Assembly: GCA_030248295.1 (NCBI GenBank)
Contig: JASANH010000457.1
Span: 1-64,000 of the forward strand
Source: Mesodorylaimus sp. YZB2_4
Taxonomy: Eukaryota; Nematoda; Enoplea; Dorylaimida; Dorylaimidae
Direction: 5' to 3'
Length of the DNA: 64,000 bases
A model generated the notes under the pieces. It was not told the origin of the DNA and did not search any database. It was given only the letters and a program-made list of their open reading frames with translations. The position numbers were made by a program, and so were the translations under genes. This document shows positions 6,864-60,658 of this stretch, in pieces; within the stretch, counting starts at the first letter, position 1; every line of letters begins with the position of its first letter.

Positions 6864-7005
6864 CTAAAAATTTGCTTCTGTTTTGTAGTAAGTGGTTGGT
6901 AAATGTGCGCGTGCGCCCGCGGGAAGTAAACGGGTGCTGTTTGCATCTCTCCCGTGTGCTGTTTTTGTTTTCCGAATTCGGCCTTCATATTGTGCACATT
7001 GCAAA

Positions 7006-7336
7006 TGTAATACTCGACAATTCGCAAACCTCGAAGTGTTTACTTGGAGTCCCCGAACATATAAAACACGGCAGTGTACATACAAGGTTAAAACATCATC
7101 GCAACTGGTTACAGGCACCATTCTCGACCATTGTCCGCAATCGATAATGGCGGACAATGGCGGTCCATATACGGCCCGTTGGTTTACATAGCGCCGCATG
7201 GGATGGGCGAGGTGCGGCCTAACATACGCGGGCACGCACTTACATACTTACGTTTACGCAGGACATCAATGATCATACATGTACTGTACAGTATCTGTGC
7301 TTACTGTACGAGCTAGAAAGAGGGATATCTATTACA
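7006..7336 (-). repeat. 3' LTR of the gag-env-pol element
   Basis: 331 bp, TGTAATACTCG...TCTATTACA on the plus strand. It differs from the other LTR by one base that I can see (CATGGGATGGG here, CATGGGGTGGG there). It contains a TTTATATG-type TATA-like word in the minus direction near 7055-7065 and a strong hairpin at 7128-7160. Confidence 0.92.
7128..7160. promoter_or_regulatory. 11-bp hairpin palindrome inside the LTR
   Basis: CCATTGTCCGC (7128-7138) and its exact reverse complement GCGGACAATGG (7150-7160) are separated by 11 nt containing ATCGAT. The same structure is present in the other LTR (15981-16013). The position downstream of the TATA-like word hints at a transcript hairpin or a dimeric protein site; this is inference. 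Confidence 0.5.
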
Positions 7337-7343
7337 TTCTCCC
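7337..7343 (-). promoter_or_regulatory. Short polypurine run before the 3' LTR
   Basis: Read on the minus strand, GGGAGAA lies directly against the LTR start, the expected place of the plus-strand primer. It is short and preceded by a C-rich stretch, so it is a modest match. Confidence 0.45.
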
Positions 7344-7350
7344 GGGCGGG

Positions 7351-9075
7351 TCACGAGTTCGCTCCTGCCGAGTGGCCCGGAATTTGTCGTGGTCGCAGAT
7401 TGTAGTGTCGCACAGTGGAGCTCGGGGGCTGTCGTTTGATCGTCGGCTTCCGGTTGGTCGAGACGGCGGTAGGTTCCGTGGCGGTTGGCGTTGGTGGTAG
7501 CTGCGGCGTCGAGTCTTGGAGATGGCGTGGTCGTGGTGGTGGTGCTGGTTTAGTACGATTGACGTGGATCCAGACTGTCCGGAATTTGGTGTGTCGAACT
7601 GAAATGGTTGGGCCACGGACATCCTTTATGACAAGCGGTCCTGTCCAGCGGTTTTGTAGCGCTTTACTGGTGCCAGTTTTCGCGGCTTCGTTTTTGACGA
7701 ACACTTTGTCACCCGGCCGATAGTGATGCATTCGTGCGGTCTTGTCGTATTGTTTCTTCTGTGTATGCTGCGCATGCACAATGTTTGCGTGAGCTGCCTC
7801 GTGTGATTTCGTTAGTAATGCTCGCACGGTCTCTGCATAGCTGTCCATGTCAACTAAATATGGTTGCGGCTGAGGCGGCATTTGAAACGCTCCCGGGTTT
7901 CGGGGGGTTCTGCTGAAGTTGAGTTCGAACGGCGAATATTTGGAGGACGCGTTAACAGACGTATTATGAGCATTTACCGTATATGGTAACAGTTCGTCCC
8001 ACATTACCTGCATATCGCGGTTACGTTTGGTGCGCGCGTATATGCGCAGCATGGTACCCAGGATTTTATGCCAACGTTCGATCAGACCGTCTCCTTGGGG
8101 GTGGTAAATGGATGAGTAGTTGTGCGTGATGCCGAAGATTTCGCAAACGTCGTTCAGCGTGCTAGCTCGAAGGTTGCTTCCGTTATCGGAAATAAGGCGT
8201 TTTGGAGGTCCGTGTCGCAATATGACTAATTCGATGAATGCTTTTGTCACGGTTGGGGTGGTGACGTCGGGTACCGCGATTGCTTCAACATAACGTGTGA
8301 GATAATCGATGAAACTGATCGTGAAGCGGTTGCCCGTTTGTGTATGACCCTTGATCGGGCCTTTGATATCGACTGCTACGAGTTCCCATGGTGTGGTGGG
8401 CGTTGGGATCGGGCATAACGGCGCCTTAATATAGTTTCGCGGTGGTTTCTGTTTTGCGCACTCAAGACATGTACTGCAGTATTCCCTAATATCTTTGAGC
8501 ATGGTGGGCCAAAAGAATAGCGGTTTCAAACGAGCGGTGGTTTTCTGTGTGGCCATGTGTCCACAGAATGGGCTGTCGTGATAGAGTCGTAGAATTGCTG
8601 GCACTAAGGTAGATGGCACGCATAAGCGTTTGCCGTTGTCTCTGACGCAGTGGTACAGGAGCCCATTTTTAAACTGAAAATTGTTATTTTCGTGTGGGTT
8701 TCCCTTCCTTTCTCTTTCTATAATGTCTTGGATGATGATGCCGAAAATACGGTCTTGTCTTTGTGCTACAGCCCATTCTTCCCAGTTCACCACTGGAGCC
8801 AGTAATTGCGGTAAGCCTGCAATAATAGCATTTGTCCATTTTTCTGTGGGCTTGGATTTTGGCCATTCTGCTTGCGTTGTGCTATTAGGGTTGGGTGACG
8901 ACTGTGCTGCCGCAAGTGCGGCGGGTAAATGAGTTTGAACAAAGGAGTGTGCGTTTTGTAATGCCGCCCACAGAATTGACCATTTCTTCCGCTGGGATGG
9001 CTGCGGTGACCTGGTTTGGTTCCTCTGACTGATGATCCGTGGGGCATATTGGTGGTCGTGACAAGGGGTCGGCAT
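7351..9075 (-). CDS. Integrase region of pol
   Basis: This 574-residue frame holds the integrase that inserts element cDNA into the genome. Seen in order: a zinc-binding HHCC module (His near 166 and 173, Cys near 200 and 203, in a YCSTCLECAK context), the catalytic core with Asp near 236 (VDIKGP), Asp near 297 (SDNGSN) and Glu near 333 (GLIERWHK), giving the D,D35E spacing, then a GPF/Y-like segment (NRWTGPLVI) and a proline-rich tail ending 15 bp from the LTR. All catalytic residues are present. The first 50-60 residues overlap the RNase H frame in another register; true integrase probably starts after the frame change near 9000, so the annotated start is arbitrary. Ty3/gypsy-like. Confidence 0.9.
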   Translation of the reverse strand: MPTPCHDHQYAPRIISQRNQTRSPQPSQRKKWSILWAALQNAHSFVQTHLPAALAAAQSSPNPNSTTQAEWPKSKPTEKWTNAIIAGLPQLLAPVVNWEEWAVAQRQDRIFGIIIQDIIERERKGNPHENNNFQFKNGLLYHCVRDNGKRLCVPSTLVPAILRLYHDSPFCGHMATQKTTARLKPLFFWPTMLKDIREYCSTCLECAKQKPPRNYIKAPLCPIPTPTTPWELVAVDIKGPIKGHTQTGNRFTISFIDYLTRYVEAIAVPDVTTPTVTKAFIELVILRHGPPKRLISDNGSNLRASTLNDVCEIFGITHNYSSIYHPQGDGLIERWHKILGTMLRIYARTKRNRDMQVMWDELLPYTVNAHNTSVNASSKYSPFELNFSRTPRNPGAFQMPPQPQPYLVDMDSYAETVRALLTKSHEAAHANIVHAQHTQKKQYDKTARMHHYRPGDKVFVKNEAAKTGTSKALQNRWTGPLVIKDVRGPTISVRHTKFRTVWIHVNRTKPAPPPRPRHLQDSTPQLPPTPTATEPTAVSTNRKPTIKRQPPSSTVRHYNLRPRQIPGHSAGANS

Positions 9076-9886
9076 TATTCTTGTTTCCCGGTCGATATTG
9101 GAACGTGATCTTGTATTGCTGTACTAGCATACCCCATCGTGCCAATCGTGGGTGTGAGTGTTGTTTTTCGAAGATGCTTTTGAGAGCCTGGTTATCCGTG
9201 ACGACCGTGATTTCTTGTCCATATAATAGCGTACGGAAGTACTCTAAACTGGCTACGATCGCTAATGCTTCCAATTCGCATATGGCGTAGTTTCTTTCGT
9301 GCTTGTTCAGGGCCCTTGCGTAGTACGCCACTGGGTGATCCCCGTCGGGGTATGGTTGGGATAGTACGGATCCCAAACCCGTGATTGAGCTATCTGTTTG
9401 AAGAATCCATGGTTTTTTGAAATTTGGTTGTGCTAAAATCGGCGCGTTTACGAGCGACTCCTGGATTTTCTGGAATGCTTGGTCTTGTTGCTGCCCCCAT
9501 TCGAAGGGTGTATTTTTGCATAGCAGTTTGTGCAGTGGGCGAGCGAGCGATGCGAAATTTTTGATAAAACGCTTGTAATAGACTGGCAACCCCAGGAATG
9601 ATCGTAGCTCTGTTGCATTTTTGGGTGGCTTACATGTTTTAATCTTTTCGATTTTCTGGGGATCGGGCTGGACACCATTCTGGCTGATCTGATATCCGAG
9701 GTACCGCACTTCTTCGCATAGGAACTGACATTTTTCAGGGCGTAGTTTTAGTCCAGCTTCATACAACCGTTCCGGGATGGCCTCCAGACGCTCATTGTGT
9801 TCTTGCATTGTGCGGCCAAATATGAGAATATCGTCCAAATAGGTCAGACATGTCTTGAACTGCATCCCAGCAAGGATGAGGTCCAT
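8885..9886 (-). CDS. RT (C-terminal half) and RNase H of pol
   Basis: The frame starts directly after an in-frame TAG at 9893-9895 and continues the same RT reading frame. It contains the RT active-site box YLDDILIF, the RT thumb (LRSFLGL..YYKRFI) and an RNase H domain with acidic residues in QTDSS, ELEALA and VTDNQAL contexts, ending with a GNKNNADPLSR linker. The polyprotein goes on in another frame at 7351-9075, so a frameshift lies between about 8960 and 9070. Either the element is mutated at both places or recoding is used; a nonsense change in the RT palm is the simpler reading. Confidence 0.88.
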   Translation of the reverse strand: MDLILAGMQFKTCLTYLDDILIFGRTMQEHNERLEAIPERLYEAGLKLRPEKCQFLCEEVRYLGYQISQNGVQPDPQKIEKIKTCKPPKNATELRSFLGLPVYYKRFIKNFASLARPLHKLLCKNTPFEWGQQQDQAFQKIQESLVNAPILAQPNFKKPWILQTDSSITGLGSVLSQPYPDGDHPVAYYARALNKHERNYAICELEALAIVASLEYFRTLLYGQEITVVTDNQALKSIFEKQHSHPRLARWGMLVQQYKITFQYRPGNKNNADPLSRPPICPTDHQSEEPNQVTAAIPAEEMVNSVGGITKRTLLCSNSFTRRTCGSTVVTQP

Positions 9887-9892
9887 TAGTGA

Positions 9893-12307
9893 CTAAAAGG
9901 TGGCTGGTGCTCCTGTTAGTCCAAAAACCATGCGCGTTGGCTGATAGTGGCCTGTGTGTGTGACAAATGCTGCTTTCTGTTGTGCGTCTTCGGATAGTGG
10001 TATCTGGAGGTACCCCCAAGCTTGATCTAACGACGTGAAGTACTGGCTTTCGCCGACAGCATCGATCAGATCGTCGATTCGTGGCATTGGGTATGCATTG
10101 AATTTCGTTTGGGCGTTGAGACGTCTCAGGTCGCAGCAAATGCGAAACGTTTTGTTCTTTTTGGGAACTACCACGATGGGGCTTGCGTATGGGCTATCGG
10201 ATACCTTGACCCATCCTAAGTCAAGTTGTTCCTTGATTTGTTTTTCCACTTCTTCGCGTAAGACTGGTGGCAGTCGATGTGGGGGCTGCCGAAATGGTGG
10301 GTTATTGCCCGTATCGATTTCATGCTGAACGAGTGGGCAAAATCCGATGTCGTTTTTGCTGCGTGCGTAGAGCCATGGGAATTTTGCCAGTATCTGCAAA
10401 AGTGTTTCTTTTTGTTCCTCAGTTGCCTTTGATTTATCCCATTTTCCAGTCTGTGTTAGCCATGCGTAGACTTTCGAATCGGGCTTATCGAGTTTTTGAT
10501 GCTGGGGTGCTGTTGGATTGCTTGTCATTTTCGGCTTGTGATTTGGATCGTCAGAAATGGTTAGCACCGCAGCTTCGTTGGTAATCGTGGTGACTGTACC
10601 GATACGGCTGTTTGCGTAGACTGTGGCGTCTGTGCGTCCGACGTTTGTGACTTTGGCGAGTATTTTGCCGTCTTGGACTTTTGAAACTGTCCTAGCGTAG
10701 CGTAGGCCCATTGAGTCCTGGTTGCTATGGGGCTCGAACATGATTGTAGCGCCATTTGGGGCGGAGACCGACAAAACAAAGTACTGTGTATGCTGCCCAG
10801 GTATCATGAATGTATTCGCAACTTTTGCAATTTCTTCATCAATTATTGGCTCGACTCCTCTGAGCTCGACCGTCCATGCCCCACCCAGGTCCAGTGTTTT
10901 GTTGTTAAAATCGAAGGCGGCGTACGGAAACCGATACATAAAATCAGTTCCGAGGATTACGGGTACTACCAAGTCATCGGCGACTAATGCAACGATTGTT
11001 TGCCTGTGGCCTTCTATGTCGATGTCTAGTGCTGTCATTCCTGCTAACTTGAGTTCTTCTCCGTTTGCTACCTTTGGCCCGTCAGGTGCTGCGAATAGCG
11101 GATATGCGATTCCGAGCGACTGCATGAATTTGTATGTATTGTGCGCCAGCAACGTGACGCAGGAACCTGTGTCCCATAATGCCATAGCGCCTGGTTTACC
11201 ATTTATTGTGACGACGCTCCAAGGCGTTTGTGGTTTCGCGTTTTGTAGACTGAGTACTTTGTATACGTCGTCGACAGTTTGTGCTTGACGTGTTCCTGGC
11301 TCCCGGGGACTCTGCCAGTGTAAGGCTGGATAAAGCGGTTTGCTTTTTGGTTGTTTCATTTGAACCACTAAGTCAGCGATGGTAAGTGTCGTTGGGCCTT
11401 TCCAATGGCTGTAATCGTTTGAGGGCGGGAGCGCCGGAGCTGATGGTTTGTGCGCTACTAGTGTTGGCGTGGGTCCATAGTTTGTCTGGGCTCGTTCTGA
11501 TGGTCTGCATGTCGGTGTATCTGGTGTTGATACAGCGATCTGCGGTTCTTGTTCTGGGTCGGTGTGATCTGCGTCTGTGTTCCAGTCTCTGTTGCATCCA
11601 TAGCAGTGTAAGAACAACCAAATGGCGAAGATAATAGCTCCGAGAACGAATAAGATTATGACGGTAGTGATGATGGAATGCAGTGGCCCTCCTAACAACT
11701 TATTTACTGATTCCGCTCCATTTTTGGCTATGCCTCCAAACAATTTTCCTATACCGTCGCCTGCTCCTGTAAGGGCCTTGCCTATGCCGTTCCCTACACC
11801 ACTCAGAGTTTGGTACACTGCGTCGGGGTTCCAGGACATATCAGCTGTGTATCTTATGACTCTATCCAATGCTTGCGCAATGCGTCCTGTATGTGTTGCA
11901 TAGTGCCTGAGCATTTGAATTGCACTTTCGACGCCCTGTAGTTGGTCATGAAACAAGGCCGGTTGATCGAACAGAAACGGTTGCGATTTGTTTTTCCATG
12001 CGAGTTCGATTACAAATGGTGTTACTGCTGCTGGGCCGGTTGTGGTATACCAATGCGTGTTCTTCTGAAACCTACCGATTATGTGATGACCACATGGTAT
12101 GGTTGTGTGCTGGGTCGTAAGGTCTTTGGTGCCGGGGATTACAAAGTAAGTGAGATTGCCAACGCGCACAGGTAACTCTGCAAAGCAGGTATCATTGATC
12201 CTATATGACCAATATATTTGGGAACTTCGATTTACAGCTACGGACTTACATTGCCATATGAGTAATGCTTCCCCTGCAAAGGCAGCGTGAATGTCCGTGC
12301 GCTGCAA
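9893..12307 (-). CDS. Envelope C-terminal half fused to protease and RT
   Basis: An 804-residue open frame with three parts. Residues about 1-210 are a cysteine- and glycosylation-site-bearing ectodomain half with a glycine-rich repeating segment (GVGNGIGKALTGAGDGIGK) near 169-188. A membrane anchor follows at about 211-234 (ITTVIILFVLGAIIFAIWL), then a hydrophilic tail. Next comes an aspartic protease with the catalytic triplet in ALWDTGSC (Asp-Thr-Gly near 379-381) and an ILGTDF motif. RT begins near residue 630 (conserved SPIVVVPKKN, RICCDLRRLN, YFTSLDQAWGY) and is cut by TAG at 9893 just after GLTGAPATF. The first codon is TTG; the frame stays open upstream through about 12390, so this is not a real start. 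The membrane-anchored part and the protease share one uninterrupted frame. Confidence 0.85.
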   Translation of the reverse strand: MQRTDIHAAFAGEALLIWQCKSVAVNRSSQIYWSYRINDTCFAELPVRVGNLTYFVIPGTKDLTTQHTTIPCGHHIIGRFQKNTHWYTTTGPAAVTPFVIELAWKNKSQPFLFDQPALFHDQLQGVESAIQMLRHYATHTGRIAQALDRVIRYTADMSWNPDAVYQTLSGVGNGIGKALTGAGDGIGKLFGGIAKNGAESVNKLLGGPLHSIITTVIILFVLGAIIFAIWLFLHCYGCNRDWNTDADHTDPEQEPQIAVSTPDTPTCRPSERAQTNYGPTPTLVAHKPSAPALPPSNDYSHWKGPTTLTIADLVVQMKQPKSKPLYPALHWQSPREPGTRQAQTVDDVYKVLSLQNAKPQTPWSVVTINGKPGAMALWDTGSCVTLLAHNTYKFMQSLGIAYPLFAAPDGPKVANGEELKLAGMTALDIDIEGHRQTIVALVADDLVVPVILGTDFMYRFPYAAFDFNNKTLDLGGAWTVELRGVEPIIDEEIAKVANTFMIPGQHTQYFVLSVSAPNGATIMFEPHSNQDSMGLRYARTVSKVQDGKILAKVTNVGRTDATVYANSRIGTVTTITNEAAVLTISDDPNHKPKMTSNPTAPQHQKLDKPDSKVYAWLTQTGKWDKSKATEEQKETLLQILAKFPWLYARSKNDIGFCPLVQHEIDTGNNPPFRQPPHRLPPVLREEVEKQIKEQLDLGWVKVSDSPYASPIVVVPKKNKTFRICCDLRRLNAQTKFNAYPMPRIDDLIDAVGESQYFTSLDQAWGYLQIPLSEDAQQKAAFVTHTGHYQPTRMVFGLTGAPATF

Positions 12308-12389
12308 TCTCTTGCTCCTAGTGTGGCATCCAACCGAAGTAGTTGCCAGATGATCTGTAACTGCCGGGCTGCTGTTTTGCAGAGTTCCA

Positions 12390-14204
12390 TCAAACTTGGC
12401 GGAAGTTCGCTTGCTCGAGTTCCAGTATCCTGAGTTCTAAGTACTGCAGTTTTGCGTTTTCTGGGTCAAGAGAATCAAGTATTTGTCGCTTTTGCCGAGT
12501 TTTGGTTTTTTTATTTGTCATGTGTTGCGTCAATGCAGGTGATCGTAGATAGACACCTTGTATCGTTTTGTGCATATGTGTTTGATTGCATAGGGTGCTG
12601 AGTCCACCGTAAGTCAACGCTGCTTGTAGCGAGTCAATAATGATCGCTTTGTCGTTTATTTTTAGCGTGACATCCTTTTTACATATCAATGGACAAAAGT
12701 GCGTAAATACATTCTCTTTCCAAACCACAGTGTTATGTTCGGTCACACACGCTGTCATATTCGCTTCGCAGTTCGAGAGGTCGTCCAAGTCGCTCCATAT
12801 AGCGTGCCCGTCATTTGTTGCGACTGATCCGAGCTCTAGAATGAAATTACTGCTTGTTTGGCAGACTTCCTTGCAACACCATGTGGATCCTATTTCCAAA
12901 GTGTCATTTGTTCCCCATACGCCATCGTCTAACTGCAATATGATTTTGCCTTTGATTTGACGGTACTTCCATGCAAATTGACATTCAAGAGGATCTGTTG
13001 GTATGATGCGCCTAGTGTTAATGCGTTCTGATCTCCAGCCCAGGAATGCGACCGTGGAGCAGACGGTATGTTCCACCCAAGAGCATTTTGCAGCGGGAAC
13101 TTGGTCTGGTGTATCCCTGCGGACCCAAACTTCTGCTTTCATGGATGCGACAGTTTCGGAGAGCTCCCTTGGCGCTGTACATGTTATGTCTGTTGGGACA
13201 GCTATTGCCGTTGCGCTCTTCGATGCTCCACACAAGTAGTACTCTTCTATCTGTGCTTGTGTTGTTGGTATGCTGTTTAGGCATAGGCCCAACGCTAATC
13301 CCATGATGGCCCATATCGGCGCTGTATAATTCTTAATATGCTTCCCTGGTGGGTCATACCTTTTGCTAGGTTCTTGCAAACCTGACGGATCTGGTCGGCT
13401 CCGCTTCGACGACCCTTGTCGACTGTACGTTTCTTCCCATCGTCCATAAAGACGTCGGCTTTGGTCGGCAGCATACCCGAATGCCATCAGGCCTTCATTG
13501 GCTTTGATAATTTCGCGTAATAAGCGTGGTGGTGGGCCCGTATTGTGCGCGCCTTCATCCGCCAATTGGCTCAACGCCGAACTGATGTGTTCGTAACTCT
13601 CGATGTCGTGAATCGTGCCCTCCTGGTCGACCAGCCCGTGGATGAAGTTCAGCAACTGCGCCGTGCGGGTAGGGTAGACCTTGGTTGAAAAAGGCGAAAC
13701 CTTGGTCTGGTTCTGTTTGACCGGAGTGGGGATTGTGTCCAAGGTTGTCCATTTGGTGCACTTGACGATGTCCGGGTCTTGTTGTTCGCTCTCATTGTCT
13801 GCGGCCGACTCCACTGGCGAGTCTGGCAGGAACTCGATGAATTCTGGCGTGACGTCGTGTTCGTCCGTTTCCGTTTGGGCATTGGTTGACTGCGAACAGG
13901 GTTCAACGCGTTCTGGATTGATGTCCATCTTCATGGCTGACTCCGAGTTGGGTTCGATTGGGTCGGGTTGTCGGCGTGGTGGTTTTAGTTGTTGTGACTC
14001 GGATCGCTGCTGTTGAGGGTGCTGAGTTGGTGATGACGATTGGGCCTCGATCATCGTCCGCGGCTGATCGTTAGTCCTTTCTCTAACTGGCTGCTCCTTT
14101 GGTGCCGGCGGCGTTGGTAGCAACGTCTTTCGTTTCGTGATAATGCCGGCGTAGTTGACGAAAGCGGCTTCGTCGATCGGCTGCCAATTTTCGTTGGTGG
14201 CCAC
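12390..14204 (-). CDS. Envelope-like glycoprotein, N-terminal half
   Basis: A 604-residue frame. Residues 1-290 are hydrophilic, rich in Pro, Ser, Gln and charged residues, with no domain that I recognise. A hydrophobic segment at about 295-311 (IWAIMGLALGLCL), followed by a TTQAQ cleavage-like site, looks like an internal signal sequence. Residues 320-565 form a cysteine-rich ectodomain with several N-glycosylation sequons. A furin-type RQKR site lies near 570-573, followed by a leucine-rich, coiled-coil-prone stretch. The frame stops at 12390-12392, while the other frame (12307-9893) is open across the same place and carries the rest. The family is not recognised with certainty; the layout is that of a viral-type fusion glycoprotein. 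Only TAA and one codon separate it in frame from gag. Confidence 0.75.
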   Translation of the reverse strand: MATNENWQPIDEAAFVNYAGIITKRKTLLPTPPAPKEQPVRERTNDQPRTMIEAQSSSPTQHPQQQRSESQQLKPPRRQPDPIEPNSESAMKMDINPERVEPCSQSTNAQTETDEHDVTPEFIEFLPDSPVESAADNESEQQDPDIVKCTKWTTLDTIPTPVKQNQTKVSPFSTKVYPTRTAQLLNFIHGLVDQEGTIHDIESYEHISSALSQLADEGAHNTGPPPRLLREIIKANEGLMAFGYAADQSRRLYGRWEETYSRQGSSKRSRPDPSGLQEPSKRYDPPGKHIKNYTAPIWAIMGLALGLCLNSIPTTQAQIEEYYLCGASKSATAIAVPTDITCTAPRELSETVASMKAEVWVRRDTPDQVPAAKCSWVEHTVCSTVAFLGWRSERINTRRIIPTDPLECQFAWKYRQIKGKIILQLDDGVWGTNDTLEIGSTWCCKEVCQTSSNFILELGSVATNDGHAIWSDLDDLSNCEANMTACVTEHNTVVWKENVFTHFCPLICKKDVTLKINDKAIIIDSLQAALTYGGLSTLCNQTHMHKTIQGVYLRSPALTQHMTNKKTKTRQKRQILDSLDPENAKLQYLELRILELEQANFRQV

Positions 14205-14207
14205 GTT

Positions 14208-15257
14208 TTAGATGGCGGCTGCGTTTCCATTACGGCAATTCCTGGCCCAATGTCCTTCTTGATTACACTTCCGGCATCGGTTATCGTTGGGTCGATTTGT
14301 TGGGTTGGTCCCTTGGAACAGCTGTTGGTGCGGTTGTCGTGTTGTGGGTCCATTGCTGAATCGTGAGTCGCGGCAGCTCTTTGCGTCGTGGCCCCGGCGG
14401 TCACACAGCTGACACTTGGTCTGGAATCGGCATTCCTGACTGATATGCGATTTCCACGCTCGTCCATGCTTCTTGCATTCGTCGCATCCAATTGTGTCAC
14501 TACGTCGATTACTTGTCCCACTCATTTCGGTCTTTCGACCTAAAACGTTAGCCATTAAGCTGAATGCTTTTAATAGTGCTGCTGATTCCTCCGTGGACGC
14601 ATTTGCCGACCCTAACTTTCCACCTGGTTCCCACAGTTGCATAGCGCATGCTTTGCGGATGTAATCATCAAGCGTAGGGTTGGGTATGTCCATACTGCCC
14701 ACCATTTGCCTCATCTGTGCAGATTTTAGCCCTCTTAGAAACTGTGATTTTACTCTGCTTTCTTGTTCGGCGTTCGTGGAATTACGAAATGCTCTTCTTG
14801 CCAATTGTTTCAGCTCGTTTGCAAATGCTTCTACTGTTTCTCCTTCTCTCTGTACCCGTTGCTGAAACTCTAGGTCTCTTAGAGCGGCTGCGCGGTTCTC
14901 TGGGAATCTTTCAATAAACTGCTGGCGATAAAAGGCCCAAGTGGGTGGATTGGGAGCTCCGATCATGATGTCTCGGTATGCTATTTTTGCTGACCCCATT
15001 ACAGCAATGTCTAGGAAATCGATTTTTGCTTGCTCGTCTAAGTGCAAGCGGCGGGAAAATCTTTCAAAATCATCCAGCCAATCTGTTACACTTTCATCGA
15101 TGCTGCCTCCAAATATGGGCGGTGTGCCTCCTAGATTGATTCTTCCCAAGAGACCCATTAAATTTCCTGGTGTGTTAGCCTGTGCGATCCCATCCTGTAC
15201 GTGCCTTATGGTGGCTTCTGCTAACTCGGCTCTCAATTGCGTGGCTAACTGCTCCAT
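14208..15257 (-). CDS. Gag with two CCHC zinc knuckles
   Basis: A 349-residue structural protein. A retrotransposon-gag capsid region spans about 40-230 (PPIFGG, W..F...F, RFPE, REGETVEAFANELK, QFLRGLK blocks) and two CCHC knuckles follow near the C-terminus (CQLCDRRGHDAKSC, CRKCNQEGHWARNC), preceded by another Cys-rich segment. It would package element RNA. It ends with TAA at 14208-14210, in the same frame as the envelope ORF downstream. ATG at 15257 is the first Met, but the frame is open for another 500 nt upstream. Confidence 0.9.
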   Translation of the reverse strand: MEQLATQLRAELAEATIRHVQDGIAQANTPGNLMGLLGRINLGGTPPIFGGSIDESVTDWLDDFERFSRRLHLDEQAKIDFLDIAVMGSAKIAYRDIMIGAPNPPTWAFYRQQFIERFPENRAAALRDLEFQQRVQREGETVEAFANELKQLARRAFRNSTNAEQESRVKSQFLRGLKSAQMRQMVGSMDIPNPTLDDYIRKACAMQLWEPGGKLGSANASTEESAALLKAFSLMANVLGRKTEMSGTSNRRSDTIGCDECKKHGRAWKSHISQECRFQTKCQLCDRRGHDAKSCRDSRFSNGPTTRQPHQQLFQGTNPTNRPNDNRCRKCNQEGHWARNCRNGNAAAI

Positions 15258-15761
15258 TCTGTTGTCCGCTACTATCTCTGTATGTACCTCTTGCCTTATG
15301 TATCTGCGTTGCTGCGTTATGTTAATTTGTCCCTCTTGGGCTGTCTCTGCTACTTCCTTAACCTCTTGATTATGCGCTGTTTCCTCACTGCTGTTATTTG
15401 CTATTTGCTCCTCCTGCTGATCCTCAACTGTACTACTAAAGCTTGCCTCTTGGCTGTCCTGGCCGTCTACTGTGCTGCTGAAACTTGCCTCTTGGCTTTG
15501 CTTTTTCTTTTGTGAATCGTTCAGGCTAGCCTCTTGGTTTTGTTGGTCCGTTACAATACTGCTTGCTTTTTGATTCTGTTTTGTTTGGCTTTTGCCTATG
15601 CTTCCTTGTGTTCTGACCGTGTGGGTCCTATTTCTCGTTGCCCTATGTGTGGTTCCACTGGCTTGCTCCTCTGAGGCTGTCCTAATTGCTTGTCTCTGGA
15701 TTTCCAGAAACTGCTCGTGTTTGCTGCTTTTCCTAGCCGTTGCTAGTCTCGTATCTCGTAC
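15258..15761 (-). other. Open leader in frame with gag, no ATG
   Basis: From a TAA just upstream of 15761 to the gag ATG at 15257, the gag frame has no stop and no ATG that I can find. It encodes a Gln/Glu/Ser-rich low-complexity sequence with repeated QEAS-type units. It may be translated from a non-AUG start or joined by splicing, or be plain untranslated leader that happens to stay open; about 168 codons without a stop favours coding. Confidence 0.45.
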
Positions 15762-15765
15762 TTAC
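15760..15765 (-). promoter_or_regulatory. Splice-donor-like site in the element leader
   Basis: On the minus strand GTAAGTACG begins at 15765, about 94 nt downstream of the 5' LTR. A donor in the leader is what a retroelement would use to make a spliced envelope message. This is motif evidence only. Confidence 0.4.
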
Positions 15766-15839
15766 TCAGTAATTCCGCCTATTGGCAAATACCGTAAAAT
15801 AATATCCTTGATTCGGCTGCTTGTCTTCGGAGTTCGTAT

Positions 15840-15856
15840 GCCGTGTGCGGGCCCCA
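15840..15856 (-). promoter_or_regulatory. Primer-binding site
   Basis: Two nt inside the 5' LTR the minus strand reads TGGGGCCCGCACACGGC. It begins with TGG, complementary to the CCA of a tRNA 3' end. I cannot name the tRNA without searching the genome's tRNA set. Confidence 0.55.
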
Positions 15857-15858
15857 GA

Positions 15859-16189
15859 TGTAATACTCGACAATTCGCAAACCTCGAAGTGTTTACTTGG
15901 AGTCCCCGAACATATAAAACACGGCAGTGTACATACAAGGTTAAAACATCATCGCAACTGGTTACAGGCACCATTCTCGACCATTGTCCGCAATCGATAA
16001 TGGCGGACAATGGCGGTCCATATACGGCCCGTTGGTTTACATAGCGCCGCATGGGGTGGGCGAGGTGCGGCCTAACATACGCGGGCACGCACTTACATAC
16101 TTACGTTTACGCAGGACATCAATGATCATACATGTACTGTACAGTATCTGTGCTTACTGTACGAGCTAGAAAGAGGGATATCTATTACA
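15859..16189 (-). repeat. 5' LTR of the gag-env-pol element
   Basis: 331 bp, with one mismatch to the LTR at 7006-7336. It is flanked on the outside by CAAA (16190-16193), matching CAAA at 7002-7005. In element orientation it precedes the primer-binding site. Confidence 0.92.
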
Positions 16190-16235
16190 CAAAACAATTA
16201 TATCAATTACGAGATGGCACGTGCTGCTATAGTTT

Positions 16236-39149: not shown

Positions 39150-40940
39150 GCATGCCAGGATTCAAGGAGCGCAATGTCCTCATCGTCGACCCCGCCCAGG
39201 GGAGGATGCAGGATCTTGTACATAGGATCTGATGAAGACGGTCATAGTATTGACCTTATGATTGGTGAACATTCTGTATTCCAGGACATCCGTGGATTGA
39301 AAAGAAACAGCGCCCCGGGGGATGATGGCCTGACTGTTCCCATTATCAAAAACATCGCCCCCTCGATCACTCCCGCTTTAACCCTATTGTTCAATCGATC
39401 GCTCGATGAAGAATGTTTCCCTGACTCTTGGAAGATCGCTAAAGTGACCCCGATCCCAAAAACTGGCGACAAGAACAGTCTGAAATCATATCGGCCGATT
39501 TCACTTCTTAGTATTCTGTCGAAACTTCTCGAGCGTCACATTAATCGACTGATCAGCCCCTTTTTGTCATTATCTGATCATCAGCACGGTTTCGTGAAGC
39601 GTCGAGGAACAAACAGTGCCCTTATATCTGCTAGCCAATTTATCCACGACTCCCTAAACTCCAAGCAGTATAAATTCGTGGTGGGCATTTTTCTGGACCT
39701 GAAGAAAGCTTTCGATCAAGTCGGTCATACGTTATTATTAAATGGTCTGCTACATGATCATCAAGTACCTCCTAAATTGATACGCTGGCTTTCGTCGTAT
39801 TTGACTGGTCGCTCCCAACGAGTAGTGGTCGATGGATGCTCGTCCAGCCTTACTAGAGTGACTTCTGGCGTCCCGCAAGGCAGCATCCTCGGTCCTACTT
39901 TATTCGTGGCCTTTTTCGATGCACTTCTCCGTCGATTCAACGAGAGCTTCCCAGAATTCAGGAACCAAGCGTATGCCGACGATACTTGTACCTGGCTCCC
40001 ATACATTCCCTCGATGACGCCGAACATCTAATCCAGCCTGCCATAGACTTTGTATCCTCCTGGGTCGATCTGGCTGGTCTCGATTTTAATCTGTCGAAAT
40101 CTCAGGCTATTATTTTTCGCTATGGTCATGGTAAGCTCACTCGTCAACCAAAACTTTTTTTGCGCGGTCAGCCTCTAACTGTATACAACGAGGTTAAGTA
40201 TTTGGGAGTCCTTTTCACTAACGACATGAAATTTAGCGAACATGTTAGCAGCGTTGTGCGAAAAGCTACTTCCATGTTGGGTGCCTTGCGTCGAAAACTT
40301 GGTCGTCATGTGGGCCCTTCAGTTCTTGGCACAGTTTACGATGCTTGTGTGAGATCAGTTTTAGAATATGGATGTGTTTGTTGGGACCCAGTTTTGAAAC
40401 AGGATGTGCATGAACTGGAACGCGCTCAATTTTATGCCTTACGTCTTTTTTTGAACGATTTTAACATTTCGTATGATGCAGGCCTAGACAAGGCTGGCTG
40501 GGTCTCTCTTTTCAATCGTAGGAAGCGTTTGAAACTCTACCAGTTTTACAAGTTTTACAACAACATTCACGATTTTAATTTTTATGCTGATCATCCGTTA
40601 GTACATAAGACTGCTTTTCGCACTAGCGAGAGGAATGTGGCACCGCACCATTTAGTAGTTCCCAGGCATTTTTTTGAGACATACAAACAATGTTTTATAT
40701 TTTCGTGCATCGTTTTATGGAATGAGCTGGCCGCCAATGTTGCCTTGGATTCCTTACCTCGATTTCGTTTTTCTGTTTCAAAGGTTACTTTTTAGTGATT
40801 TTTTTTTTTAAGACTTCCTTGTTTCTTGACTGTGATCATTTGTTCTCTTTTTTTCATCTATTGTACTTATCCTCTTGTTTTGCAGCCCCTGAGTGCGCTT
40901 ATGCGTTTTGCTACAAATAAAACATGATGACATGATGATG
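39150..40940 (+). pseudogene. 5'-truncated LINE (CR1/jockey-like)
   Basis: A non-LTR retrotransposon lacking its endonuclease. The first frame (39174-40031) has the RT blocks NSAPGDDGL, WKIAKVTPIPK, YRPISLLSILSKLLE, QHGFVKRRGT, GIFLDLKKAFDQV, SGVPQGSILGPTLF and the active site YADDT. A one-base shift just after YADDT (about 39990) moves the rest into the frame ending at 40795, with the thumb and C-terminal blocks (VKYLGVLF, RSVLEYGCVCWDP, LYQFYKFYN). The 3' end carries AATAAAACATGATGACATGATGATG near 40917-40940, a short ATG-type tail repeat typical of CR1/L2-like elements. One shift and otherwise clean frames suggest a fairly young copy. Confidence 0.85.
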
Positions 40941-50862: not shown

Positions 50863-52576
50863 ATGAATCCCCTCATATTTTTCGCTGTGGCTGCTTTCGC
50901 ATTGGTCGCAATTTCTCTCGTCACCGCCGCACCCCCGTCGAAAAACTCAAAAGGCAATCGTCGCATTAAAACGTTCACTGAAGAAGATAAGCAAAAAATA
51001 CGCGTGAGTTTTATTGAAATGGACTATGCAGTTGGTGGCTCACTGTGGGTTGAGAGCAAACGAGCTCATTTCCAACATGATGGGTGCAATACAGCAAAAT
51101 ATTTGAATGGACGCATTTCGTTCGCCCAGAATTTCGTATTCCCATTTAATGCAGGACCCAAATGCACGATTCTTTCAACTATGAGTTTGTAGTCGCCAGC
51201 AGCATGCCCACGTAAAGAAATGAAGATTTTGAAGGGTTGGGAAACGGGATGATGATGACAATTAATGAAAGATAGGATTTTAAAGGGGTCCCACCGACAG
51301 GGTACAAAAGATTATCACAGTATAAGCGATTTTTGATATTAGCGAGTCTCAGAAAGCCTGGGGAACTACCCTTTTTCTGAACCCACGCAGGTCAGGCTTG
51401 TCAGGGCGTTTGTTTTTTAATGGCTATAAACAGCGTCACAGCATAAAAACTATGTAAAGTGAGACTTATTTTAAGGAAACATGTCAAAAAGGGAAAGACA
51501 AATGCAAAGGGCAGTCGATGGCGAGCAAGCAAAAACGAAAGCATCTGAAGGACGACTTGGTTGGAATGTGGAAACGAGCCAAGCCTGGTGGTGCCAGCGA
51601 CACAGAAATTGAAGCTCAGGTGGAAGCGCAACTGCAAAAAATTCAAGAACTGAAGGTAAAGTGGTACCAAAGCGAGGGCCTGGGCGACATTGAGCCAGCC
51701 GACGACGGACTTTGGGAAGGCGATATTATTTTGTCTTTGAAGCAAGCCGAAGCTGCGATCGCAGAGTTGGAAAACGAAATGGCTGGCGCGAGAAAGAAAC
51801 GCGGGGCCGCTGTGTTTTTTGAGCCACTACTAACTGATAGATGGAATAATGCCATGTGGCCGCAGCCGATCCGCTGGAACGTGAATGGTTCATTCAACAG
51901 CCAGGAGCAACAAGCGATGGCAGACGCCCTGAAAGAACTCGAGACTGCCGTCGGCTGCATTAAGTTCGAAAAAGTCTCTGAAAAAAGTTCCACGTCCTAC
52001 ACAGTGCTGCTAGTGGAGGTGCTGACGGCGTACTGTGGTGGAAGAAGTGCAATAGGAATGGCCTATGACAACTGGCAACCACTAGAAATGTCTCGATCCA
52101 GCTGCACGACGATGGAACGATGGAAATCAACGTTCACGCACGAAGTCATTCACGCGCTCGGAACTTGGCACGAGCACGTGCGGGAAGATCGCGATAAATT
52201 TGTGAAGATATTCCCTGAAAACATTTTAAAACAGTACCTTCATAACTACCAAATACAGACTGCCTCAACTTCTTATGGCGTGGCCTACAATGTCAAATCG
52301 ATTATGCATTACGAGACTCAATCACCCATCAAGCCGGATGTTCTGACAATCGACGGACAAGTAATACCGCGTGCACTTAATATTCAACCATCGGATATTC
52401 TCCAGTTGAAACGCACGCTCTGCTCCCCGGCGACATGCGTGGACAAGTATCGCGATTGTGGATACAACGCCACTGTACTCGGATCTTGCAGCGATGACTT
52501 GAACGGGGAGCAGTTCAGCCAAGACTGCAAGAAATCGTGCGGTGGGTGTGACAGCTTGTTCAAGACAGGAATATGA
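50863..52576 (+). CDS. Secreted astacin metalloprotease with ShK domain
   Basis: Best model: exon 50863-51003, intron 51004-51475 (GTGAGT...TTATTTTAAG, phase 0), exon 51476-52576, giving 413 residues. Exon 1 encodes a signal peptide (LIFFAVAAFALVAISLVTAA) and a basic stretch. The propeptide is charged and helical and ends at a dibasic ARKKR site. Numbered from Met at 51518, the catalytic domain spans about 97-305: zinc site HEVIHALGTWHEHVREDRD (His208, His212, His218, Glu209) and Met-turn SIMHY at 261-265. The C-terminal ShK module (307-344) has six cysteines (CVDKYRDCG...CKKSCGGC). All catalytic residues are intact. Such enzymes act outside the cell on proteins. The 51475 acceptor is chosen for its pyrimidine tract; 51514 is also in phase. 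Confidence 0.88.
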
Positions 52577-57802: not shown

Positions 57803-58047
57803 TTTTTGACGCCGGCCAAAAAACCGTCGGCGTAAAATGGAATTATCACGTGACCCCGGTGTGTTGCTCTCTAGGCATACTGTAGCTGGCCAAAAAAACG
57901 AACGAAAAATTCCTCCAGTTATCGTTATTTATTAGACTCTCTTTTTCGGTTCTTTTGATAAAGGAGTGACAAGCTACGTGAGGCCAGTGCTGGAAACATT
58001 GTTCATACACATTATAATTTGGTATCGTTTTTTGCAGTGGTAAAGAA

Positions 58048-59082
58048 ATGCGCCCTGAAACCGAATGGAACCGACGCCGAGGAAAATTTACAAAAGCGAT
58101 ATTGGCATTCAATTTTTTTGTAACTACAGCCATCACTCTGGCCGCGGCGATCAGAAACCGGCGTCATCAGTTGAAGAATTCAAGAGTCCGTAAATGTTAC
58201 GTGCGACCAATAAATCGCTGTCGCGCGATTCGCAGCGAGTACCACGTGTTGGTGGATGATTTCTACGATTTCGACGACAGGCAAGGTCATCAAGAGTATT
58301 TCAGAGTGGGTTTCGAACGCCTCAAAGATTTATTTCATCGTGTTCAACATAAGCTGTTGCATTCAAACACTCATGCGTTACCACTTCCTGCAGAGTTACG
58401 ATTTTCTCTGGCGATCAAGATATTAGCTAGTGGCGATTCTATTTTGAATACCGCATTGGCGTATAGAATCGGGGATAGAACAGCGTATAATATTTTGTAT
58501 GAAGTATGTGATGCGCTGTGGTCAGTTCTACAACCGGAATTTCTCGCCATGCCGACGGAAGAAGAGTGGCGTGGAATTGCGGATACGTATTGGAGAAATT
58601 GGAATTTTCCATTATGCCTCGGAGCCGTCGATGGCAAGCACATTGTCATCAAAAAACCACCCGAAGCCGGTAGCGCCTACTACAATTACAAATTAGATCA
58701 TTCGATTGGTCTTTTGGCGGTCGCCGATGGAGATTATTGCTTTTCCTTCGTTGACATCGGCCAGTATGGAAGATTTTCAGATGGCGGCGTGTTCCGGAAC
58801 ACCACATTTGGTCAGGCCATCAGGGACACTTTCGGTAACACGCTCAAAATACCCAGACCGACCATTCTTCCAGGCTCTGACGTCCTATGCCCGTACGTAT
58901 TCGTCGCTGATGCTGCTTTTCCGATTGGCCCAAACATGCTAAAACCATATGGCGGTCAGTTTCGTGAACTAAAAGAACGTCTGTTTGATTATCGCCTGAG
59001 CCGAGCTCGTAGAACTGTTGAAAATAGCTTTGGGATTTTGGCCTGCAGGTGGAGGATCTGCAGAAACCCCTTTACTGCTGCC
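58048..59082 (+). pseudogene. Harbinger transposase, N-terminal and catalytic part
   Basis: 345 codons up to the MULE insertion. A basic N-terminal part is followed by a helical DNA-binding region (LPLPAELRFSLAIKILASG, RTAYNILYEVCDALW) and the DDE nuclease: Asp195 (GAVDGKH), Asp288 (YVFVADAAF) and Glu325 (RRTVENSFG), with the family block DIGQYGRFSDGGVF at 236-249. All catalytic residues are present and no stop is seen before the break. An acceptor-like TTTTTTGCAG lies 11 nt before the ATG. The enzyme would cut and move the element. After 59082 the open frame reads into MULE sequence and ends at 59190, so the normal C-terminus is lost. Confidence 0.88.
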
Positions 59083-59088
59083 GGTATC

Positions 59089-59150
59089 CGGGCAATTCTT
59101 CGCGGGGCAATTGTTCGCCTGGGTCTATTGTTCGCCTGCTCATTTTGGGT
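59089..59150. repeat. Left subterminal repeats of the MULE
   Basis: Units of GGCAATT(C/G)TTCGC(C/G) at 59091-59116 and a TATTGTTCGCC unit near 59128 mirror the array at 60815-60905, as expected for transposase-binding repeats. Confidence 0.7.
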
Positions 59151-59338
59151 CAGTGGGAGAAAGTTATTTCGTGACCTTTATCATATATAAACTGCCTTTT
59201 GCAAGACAGTGCCATCATTCCTCTCATACCTGTCTGTGCTCGTATCTTGGGTTTTGAAATCATGGCTTTGGAATTCGTTTTCAGTGAAAAGGGAAACCTA
59301 AACTAGCCGAAAACGGTTTCTTATATGTCAAAGATAAG

Positions 59339-60658
59339 GTGAACAAGGATGGAATCACGTTTTGGAAATGCGAGAAGTTCAAGTCGAGCTGCACAGGTCG
59401 TGTTCATACTGTAGAAGAGAAGATCGTCAAAAGAATTGGCGACCATAATCATGCCCCTGATGCTGCCAAAGTCACAGCTACAAAAGTGGTGAATCTTATC
59501 AAGGATCGAGCGGTAACTTCGAGGGACAATGGGCATCAGATCGTTGCTGGAGCATCTGTCGGGATATCAAAATCGGTTGCTGCGAAGCTGCCACCCACAG
59601 AATCCATCAAGCGTACAATTCGCAAGGTTCGTCGTGCAGTCGATCCACCGCCGCCACAGCCTAAGTCGAGAGAAGAGATTGTGTTGCATGAGCGCTACAC
59701 GACAATTGGCGATGGTGAAAAATTCTTGCTTTACGATAGTGGAGCCAAAAGAAATCGCATACTAATTTTTGGCAAGCGTCGAAATCTGCAACTTCTAGAC
59801 CAGTCCGATCATTGGTGCATGGATGGCACCTTTAAGTCATCGCCACCACTCTTTGAACAACTCTACACCATTCATGGCATTTACCGCCACGACGTCACGC
59901 CAGCCTTATTCGCGCTGTTACCAGATAAGAGCGAGAACACTTATCTGCGCCTTTTCCCTCAACTGGAATCTATTCAGCCGAATCTACCGCCTCGTTCCAT
60001 TCTTACTGATTTTGAAATGGCGGCTCTCAATGCGATTGAGGAAACGTTTCCGAATGCATCACGTCGTGGCTGCTTTTATCACTTCACGCAAGCGGTCTGG
60101 AGGCATATTCAGAATTCTGGTCTTCAGCAACGATATGGCGACGACGATGAATTCGCCTTGAAAATGCGTATGTTGTCGGCGCTGGCTTACGTTCCTCCCG
60201 AACAAGTCGTAGATTCATTCGATTCACTCGTCGATTTAATCGAGTACCCTGCCGAGGCACAACCCGTCATCGATTATTTTGAAGATGTTTGGATAGGACG
60301 TCCACAGCGAAGAAACCGTCGACGTCCTCCATTATTTGCACATCAAATCTGGAGCTGTTACAACTCCGTGCTGGATGGACTCCCTAAAACCAACAACTCT
60401 GTGGAAGGATGGAACAACGGCTTTTCAAAGTTAATCGGCCATCACAGTCCAGATATTTGGAAATTTATCGACGGCCTAAAAATTGAGCAGAGTCGTAATG
60501 AAATGAAGATAAAACAAGCTATCGCTGGTCAACAATTGCCACCAGGAAAAAAGAAATATCGTGACTGCGCCGAGAGAATCGCCAGAATTGTTGCAAAGTA
60601 TGGAGAAATTGATCTTGTTGACTATGTGCGTGGTCTCGCCCACAATATCAGATACTGA
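59339..60658 (+). CDS. MULE transposase with FLYWCH zinc finger
   Basis: 439 codons from the first in-frame ATG. The N-terminus is a FLYWCH-type zinc finger (W.C..F...C.G, then GDHNHAPD at about 38-45). The MULE catalytic domain has a first Asp in HWCMDGTFK, a second in ILTDFEMAALNAI, the C..H pair in RGCFYHF, and a Glu in NNSVEGWNNGF. The C-terminal part is charged and ends at TGA. No stop or shift lies inside this frame. The natural start is probably earlier: MALEFVFS at 59260 followed by KPKLAENGFLYVKD reads like the family's N-terminus but needs a frame change in the A run near 59284, so this copy may lack a complete finger. Confidence 0.85.
   Translation: MNKDGITFWKCEKFKSSCTGRVHTVEEKIVKRIGDHNHAPDAAKVTATKVVNLIKDRAVTSRDNGHQIVAGASVGISKSVAAKLPPTESIKRTIRKVRRAVDPPPPQPKSREEIVLHERYTTIGDGEKFLLYDSGAKRNRILIFGKRRNLQLLDQSDHWCMDGTFKSSPPLFEQLYTIHGIYRHDVTPALFALLPDKSENTYLRLFPQLESIQPNLPPRSILTDFEMAALNAIEETFPNASRRGCFYHFTQAVWRHIQNSGLQQRYGDDDEFALKMRMLSALAYVPPEQVVDSFDSLVDLIEYPAEAQPVIDYFEDVWIGRPQRRNRRRPPLFAHQIWSCYNSVLDGLPKTNNSVEGWNNGFSKLIGHHSPDIWKFIDGLKIEQSRNEMKIKQAIAGQQLPPGKKKYRDCAERIARIVAKYGEIDLVDYVRGLAHNIRY

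What the first reader, a model, noticed from the sequence alone, without database searches (positions are those of the whole stretch)
7006..16189. LTR retroelement with an envelope gene between gag and pol
Seen: gag knuckles (15257-14208), then an envelope-like glycoprotein with internal signal sequence, cysteine-rich ectodomain, RQKR site and membrane anchor (14204 to about 11600), then protease, RT, RNase H and integrase, all on one strand between near-identical LTRs with a 4 bp duplication. In known envelope-bearing retrotransposons and retroviruses the envelope lies downstream of integrase. I know of no named group with gag-env-protease-RT order, so this may be an undescribed lineage.
Basis: partly seen in the sequence, partly recalled or inferred. 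Interest (0 to 1): 0.88.

Follow-up and report, generated by a model that had tools for sequence, protein, structure and literature searches.

The report
Retroelement with envelope inside its polyprotein
A young virus-like mobile element, probably in a roundworm genome, carries a herpesvirus-gB-like membrane-fusion protein between its capsid and enzyme parts instead of at the end, and distant cousins in the same genome share this unusual order.

The parts
7002..7005 (.). target-site duplication CAAA (left copy)
16190..16193 (.). target-site duplication CAAA (right copy)
15859..16189 (-). 5' LTR of the element
7006..7336 (-). 3' LTR of the element
   Evidence: 330/331 identical to the 5' LTR
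15841..15856 (-). candidate primer-binding site TGGGGCCCGCACACGG, two bases after the 5' LTR
   Evidence: sequence; the matching tRNA was not looked for
7337..7343 (-). short candidate polypurine tract GGGAGAA next to the 3' LTR
   Evidence: sequence; weak
14208..15761 (-). gag ORF, with Retrotrans_gag and CCHC knuckle; first ATG is codon 169 (15257)
13323..14207 (-). leader between gag and envelope, in frame with gag after a stop that C356 and C109 lack
13254..13322 (-). candidate internal signal sequence (weakly hydrophobic)
   Evidence: reading; below the 1.6 hydropathy threshold; no signal-peptide program run
12498..13253 (-). envelope ectodomain, first part, gB domain I/II-like, cysteine-rich
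12486..12497 (-). RQKR, furin-type site
11681..12485 (-). envelope second part: long helix and fusion-glycoprotein core (Monjiviricetes_fusion 12307-12029 in the window copy); the frame changes within 12436-12390 in this copy
11609..11680 (-). membrane anchor
   Evidence: hydropathy 2.95 over 19 residues from 11665
10934..11212 (-). aspartyl protease (PF13975 match, below the family cut-off)
9686..10168 (-). reverse transcriptase, interrupted by a stop at 9893-9895
9113..9499 (-). RNase H
7351..9123 (-). integrase ORF (H2C2 8619-8443, rve core 8391-8098); 14 bp from the 3' LTR

Best explanation
An endogenous-retrovirus lineage of Ty3 type in which a class III (gB/chuvirus-type) fusion glycoprotein sits between gag and protease in one polyprotein frame. 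SHOWN: LTRs, duplication, domain order, class III identity, recurrence of the order in divergent families, shared unbroken frames in other copies, purifying selection on the envelope. INFERRED: genomic RNA is translated into a Gag-leader-Env-Pol precursor. The internal signal sequence sends the ectodomain into the ER; one membrane anchor follows, so Gag (before) and Pol (after) both stay in the cytosol. Signal peptidase frees Gag, a furin-like protease cuts at RQKR, and the element's protease frees Pol from the Env tail. The envelope would let particles leave one cell and fuse with another, for instance soma to germline.
For: Layout in the window and between two LTRs in copies C356, C324, C44. 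Gag end and envelope in one frame: C356 up to one stop inside env, C109, C10 (1195 aa with zf-CCHC and fusion domain above cut-off, Retrotrans_gag just below it), C96 (zf-CCHC and fusion domain). Envelope, protease, RNase H and integrase in one 1939-aa frame: C12. Env-to-RNase H distance 2.38-2.60 kb in the 11 of 11 env places that have a listed RNase H within 4 kb downstream. Class III. dN/dS between subfamilies 0.13-0.23 for envelope, 0.16-0.20 for gag. One strong anchor.
Against: No RNA or protein data. A single precursor would give Gag:Env:Pol 1:1:1, unusual for retroelements. The signal sequence is weak: no 19-residue stretch reached 1.6, while a second stretch at 1.82 lies in the protease region; no signal-peptide program was run. 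Gag codons 1-168 have no ATG yet evolve under constraint, so the start of translation is unexplained and splicing is possible; donor-like and acceptor-like sites exist. The envelope model is moderate (mean pLDDT 58, pTM 0.40), with TM-scores to gB near 0.36; the similarity rests on residues about 15-304.
Confidence: 0.58

Rival explanations
1. Same lineage and order, but env is expressed by alternative splicing: a spliced mRNA from the 5' leader gives Env, and/or removal of env as an in-frame intron gives Gag-Pol.
For: GTAAGT donor-like site at 15765 directly before the gag frame, also in C356, C109 and the C90 404k relative; other donor- and acceptor-like sites near and inside env. Cer1 of C. 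elegans makes a second protein by splicing although its 8 kb RNA can encode GAG and POL as one polypeptide (passages of PMC3315495 and PMC10309623).
Against: Site scores come from a home-made weight table without a background count, and no site pair was shown to be conserved between distant families; the 100 bases shown around the gag-frame start of C10, C90 and C96 hold no GTAAGT. The unbroken frame through env would need no upkeep if env were only an intron of gag-pol.
Confidence: 0.34
2. The envelope is a separate insertion (solo glycoprotein or another element) inside an ordinary Ty3 element.
For: Fusion-glycoprotein sequences exist alone or next to elements in other animals (PMC7642597 and PMC10084718, passages).
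Against: Same position in C356, C324, C44 and in divergent lineages; shared frames; constant env-to-RNase H distance; env and RT trees agree on window/C90b, C10/C90 and C476/C234.
Confidence: 0.02
3. A decayed arrangement: env is no longer used and persists by chance.
For: The window copy has several interruptions and other copies carry stops or deletions. Among close copies dN/dS is higher, 0.30-0.57 for env, on very few changes.
Against: dN/dS for env between subfamilies is like that of gag and protease-RT, LTRs are nearly identical, and env frames are unbroken in several families.
Confidence: 0.06

Closest known systems
Metaviridae / Ty3-Gypsy endogenous retroviruses (errantiviruses such as gypsy)
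   Same: LTRs with TG...CA ends, 4-bp duplication, gag with CCHC, protease-RT-RNase H-integrase order, envelope present
   Different: errantivirus envelope is likely from baculovirus (PMC12440569 passage) and lies 3' of pol (position recalled); here it is class III and between gag and protease
Anakin (BEL-Pao element with chuvirus-type glycoprotein, mosquitoes)
   Same: capture of a chuvirus-type glycoprotein by an LTR element (PMC7642597, passages)
   Different: BEL-Pao backbone; here Ty3-type pol. The group later wrote that they found no clear evidence of capture for Gypsy and Copia (PMC10084718, passage). The place of the glycoprotein within Anakin was not read
Cer1 of C. elegans
   Same: Gypsy/Ty3 element whose unspliced RNA can encode GAG and POL as a single polypeptide (PMC3315495 passage)
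Atlas virus, Tas, Cer-7, Roo
   Same: LTR elements with viral-type glycoproteins, three of them in nematodes
   Different: Atlas Env is class II (PMC10309623 passage; PMC9094657 start of abstract); [quoted passage not shown]
TelKA elements of bdelloid rotifers
   Same: LTR element with a fusion protein from negative-strand RNA viruses
   Different: paramyxovirus-type fusion protein as ORF3, discussed as downstream of pol (PMC5408684 passages)

Membership tests
Metaviridae (Ty3/Gypsy) | protease-RT-RNase H-integrase order | tested here: met
Metaviridae (Ty3/Gypsy) | LTRs with TG...CA ends and 4-6 bp duplication | tested here: met
   (4 bp CAAA)
Metaviridae (Ty3/Gypsy) | gag with Retrotrans_gag and CCHC knuckle | tested here: met
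   (both above cut-off)
Metaviridae (Ty3/Gypsy) | RT grouping with named Ty3 reference clades | not tested
   the tree holds only elements of this genome; env-bearing rows group (7 rows 100/100; with C12 87/87), midpoint root
Metaviridae (Ty3/Gypsy) | envelope, if present, 3' of pol (a usual rather than a defining feature; recalled) | tested here: not met
   env between gag and protease; 14 of 68 places env-first, 1 with pol upstream at a likely element junction, 53 without a listed partner
BEL-Pao (Anakin) | BEL-type pol domains (recalled) | tested here: inconclusive
   no BEL-specific model listed at E <= 1, where Ty3-type RNase H, H2C2 and gag models match
Class III viral fusion proteins (gB / chuvirus type) | sequence family | tested here: met
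   PF24664 above cut-off (10 of 13 alignment rows at E <= 0.1); profile to gB chains E 1e-5
Class III viral fusion proteins (gB / chuvirus type) | fold | tested here: met
Class III viral fusion proteins (gB / chuvirus type) | membrane fusion activity | not testable with these tools
   -
Errantivirus | baculovirus-type envelope 3' of pol (position recalled) | tested here: not met
   class III envelope upstream of protease

The most novel reading that the evidence does not exclude
A diversified lineage of infectious or formerly infectious retroviruses in which Env is translated as the middle of a Gag-Env-Pol precursor threaded through the ER membrane, with Gag and Pol on the cytosolic side: an expression and assembly plan that I know from no described retrovirus, combined with capture of a class III glycoprotein by a Ty3 backbone.
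Probability: 0.5. Interest if true: 0.88.

Novelty: new variant of a known kind. Interest (0 to 1): 0.78.

Why it matters
Retroviral gene order gag-pol-env is usually treated as fixed, with Env on its own spliced RNA (recalled). A radiation with Env inside the polyprotein would show that the order is not forced, give a second design for coupling Env, Gag and Pol, and make a test of polyprotein versus splicing possible in a probable nematode. It also documents a class III glycoprotein in a Ty3-type backbone.

Tried and rejected
Separate insertion of env: rejected. C322 as an env-last counterexample: the pol there carries a PWWP domain, and the 701 bp between it and env is a patchwork. Bases 3-227 recur about 2 kb downstream of a like pol at C291 and other parts match other repeats, so I read a boundary of two elements; not proven. 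At C718 a listed RNase H lies 7.6 kb downstream of env and was not counted.

Cer1-like hypothesis (extra region = CERV): dropped after reading that CERV lies 3' of pol. Splice-site scan: many middling sites, no background count, nothing decisive. The gag-less relative at C90:404k as a copy of a spliced RNA: the junction shows no GT-AG signature in the window counterpart, so I left it as a deletion.

Protein database: the two env-bearing frames found nothing; the alignment found one protein, P0001, from a 1383-bp contig labelled Gammaproteobacteria, which I take for animal sequence in a metagenome bin. Viral contigs: nothing; prokaryote genomes: nothing confirmed. PDB by single env sequences: nothing meaningful. 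Host: the SL1 model found nothing and its control rang nowhere, so uninformative; TTR-52 gives 27 places, so a nematode is likely but not shown (that the family is nematode-specific is recalled). Rfam scan of the window: no match.

Counts and dropped rows: gag upstream of env on the same strand was found by tblastn with the window gag in 9 of the 20 upstream pieces fetched (L048, 49, 50, 54, 56, 57, 60, 62, 67). Of the other 11, L058 has the gag match on the opposite strand, L059 and L064 are short pieces, L051 holds a LINE there, and the rest show no gag match. Only 20 of the 60 places outside the window's own family and its C90:404k relative were fetched. The RNase H and integrase lists hold the best 150 of 488 and 691 candidates, so 53 of 68 env places had no listed partner within 4 kb; being unlisted does not mean absent. 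Of ten env-bearing RT rows at hand (nine fetched plus the window), C331 and C437 were left out of the tree because they are in pieces. RNase H and integrase could not be compared between subfamilies; against C356 alone dN/dS was 0.64 and 0.55 on 13 and 17 changes.

Full report
What is there. On the minus strand at 7006-16189 lies a 9,184-bp LTR element with 331-bp LTRs (330/331 identical) and a 4-bp duplication CAAA. In element order it has gag (15761-14208; Retrotrans_gag E 1.4e-5, zf-CCHC E 3.9e-5), a frame 14207-12390 with no Pfam match above cut-off, a frame 12436-9893 with Monjiviricetes_fusion (E 1.2e-11), an aspartyl protease (E 1.8e-4, below cut-off) and the start of RT, then RT/RNase H 9892-8885 and integrase 9123-7351. 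Only 14 bp separate the integrase ORF from the 3' LTR, so there is no room for a 3' envelope. The order is therefore gag, envelope, protease, RT, RNase H, integrase.

The window copy is broken: gag ends in a stop at 14208, the envelope changes frame within 12436-12390, RT is cut at 9893 and integrase lies in another frame. In copies C356 and C109 the gag end runs without a stop through the leader into the envelope (C356 has one stop further on inside env, and C109 loses the frame just before the anchor). Whether the last two interruptions are shared by other copies was not checked. The near-identical LTRs point to a recent insertion.

Copies. Separate searches with gag, two envelope parts, an integrase part and the LTR place them in the same order between two LTRs at C356 (98-100%) and at C324 and C44 (92-94%, LTRs 88-89%, a second subfamily; C44 lacks part of the first envelope stretch). 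Partial copies are at C109, C216, C184, C85, C40, C825. More distant relatives (66-74%) are at C90:404k and C437. Counts are lower bounds, as the tool says.

A radiation. The fusion domain occurs at 68 places above cut-off in this genome and in none of 14 control genomes (which genomes these are was not shown, and they may simply lack such elements). A listed RNase H or integrase lies downstream on the same strand within 4 kb at 14 of the 68: C12, C657, C90 twice, C476, C10, C331, C838, C234, C113, C44, C101, C356, C324. In the 11 with RNase H the distance is 2.38-2.60 kb. One place, C322, has RNase H 3.1 kb upstream, where a different, PWWP-bearing element seems to abut. The other 53 have no listed partner within 4 kb. 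Unbroken frames join CCHC knuckle and envelope at C10 (Retrotrans_gag just below cut-off) and C96, and envelope, protease, RNase H and integrase at C12. In 9 of 20 fetched upstream pieces gag lies before env on the same strand (the others are listed under Tried and rejected). The RT/RNase H tree groups eight env-bearing rows (7 at 100/100; with C12 87/87) apart from 12 other rows: 11 from contigs without a PF24664 match, and the PWWP element (midpoint root; two fragmentary env-bearing rows left out). The env tree repeats the pairs window/C90b and C10/C90 and keeps C476 and C234 together; its deep branches are weak.

Selection. Between the two subfamilies dN/dS is 0.13-0.23 for the first envelope part, 0.14-0.19 for the second, 0.16-0.20 for gag, 0.12-0.26 for tail-protease-RT stretches and 0.36-0.44 for the leader. 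Among close copies, with few changes, it is higher everywhere except the tail-protease stretch (0.30-0.64, against 0.10). The envelope has been under constraint like gag and protease-RT; RNase H and integrase could not be compared between subfamilies.

How it may work. With one signal sequence and one anchor, Gag and Pol would both stay cytosolic and the ectodomain would be luminal, so a single Gag-Env-Pol precursor is topologically possible: signal peptidase, a furin-like protease and the element's own protease would separate the parts. This is inference. Splicing is the main rival: a GTAAGT donor-like site lies just before the gag frame in the window, C356, C109 and the C90:404k relative, but not in the 100 bases shown for C10, C90 and C96. 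A puzzle remains: the first 168 gag codons have no ATG but show dN/dS of 0.19-0.24, so they seem translated from a non-ATG start or joined to an exon not identified.

Host. A 145-Mb genome in 1067 contigs. TTR-52, which I recall as nematode-specific, gives 27 places; SL1 was not found, in a search whose control also failed. A nematode is likely, not shown.

Comparison with print. What I saw: passages of PMC10309623, PMC3315495, PMC7642597, PMC12440569 (with outline), PMC5408684 and PMC10084718; all else as listings. Nine answered searches listed no paper that I recognised as describing env between gag and pol; 'gag-env-pol' with retrotransposon had 0 papers. PMC10084718 says its authors found no clear evidence of capture of such glycoproteins by Gypsy and Copia elements. 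I recall, without a source at hand, recent preprint work on gB-type envelopes in metazoan Ty3 elements, so the class III capture may be known; the order is what I take as new.

Noticed in passing
window 15761-15258 (gag codons 1-168): Open and constrained (dN/dS 0.19-0.24) although the first ATG is codon 169; an in-frame TAA lies inside a GTAAGT donor-like site just upstream, also in C356 and C109.
   Followed up: partly
G000:C216:129061-132752 (L006, L017): Copy whose gag resembles the second subfamily (92% to the window) and whose envelope part resembles the window's (99%): likely recombination between subfamilies.
   Followed up: partly
L027 (G000:C90:403844-407587): Relative without gag: leader joins directly to the start of the envelope; a 21-base leader stretch is 95% conserved against about 70% around it.
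   Followed up: partly
L055 (G000:C322:79320-83936): Ty3-type pol with a C-terminal PWWP domain (E 4e-11) next to an env fragment.
   Followed up: partly
P0001: Envelope relative (36% identical over 67% of the query) on a 1383-bp contig labelled Gammaproteobacteria MAG, probably animal DNA in the bin.
   Followed up: partly
window 39150-40031, 58018-59190, 59288-60658: Other mobile-element ORFs: LINE-like RT, DDE_Tnp_4 transposase, MULE/FLYWCH protein.
   Followed up: no
window 51458-52576: Astacin metalloprotease ORF.
   Followed up: no
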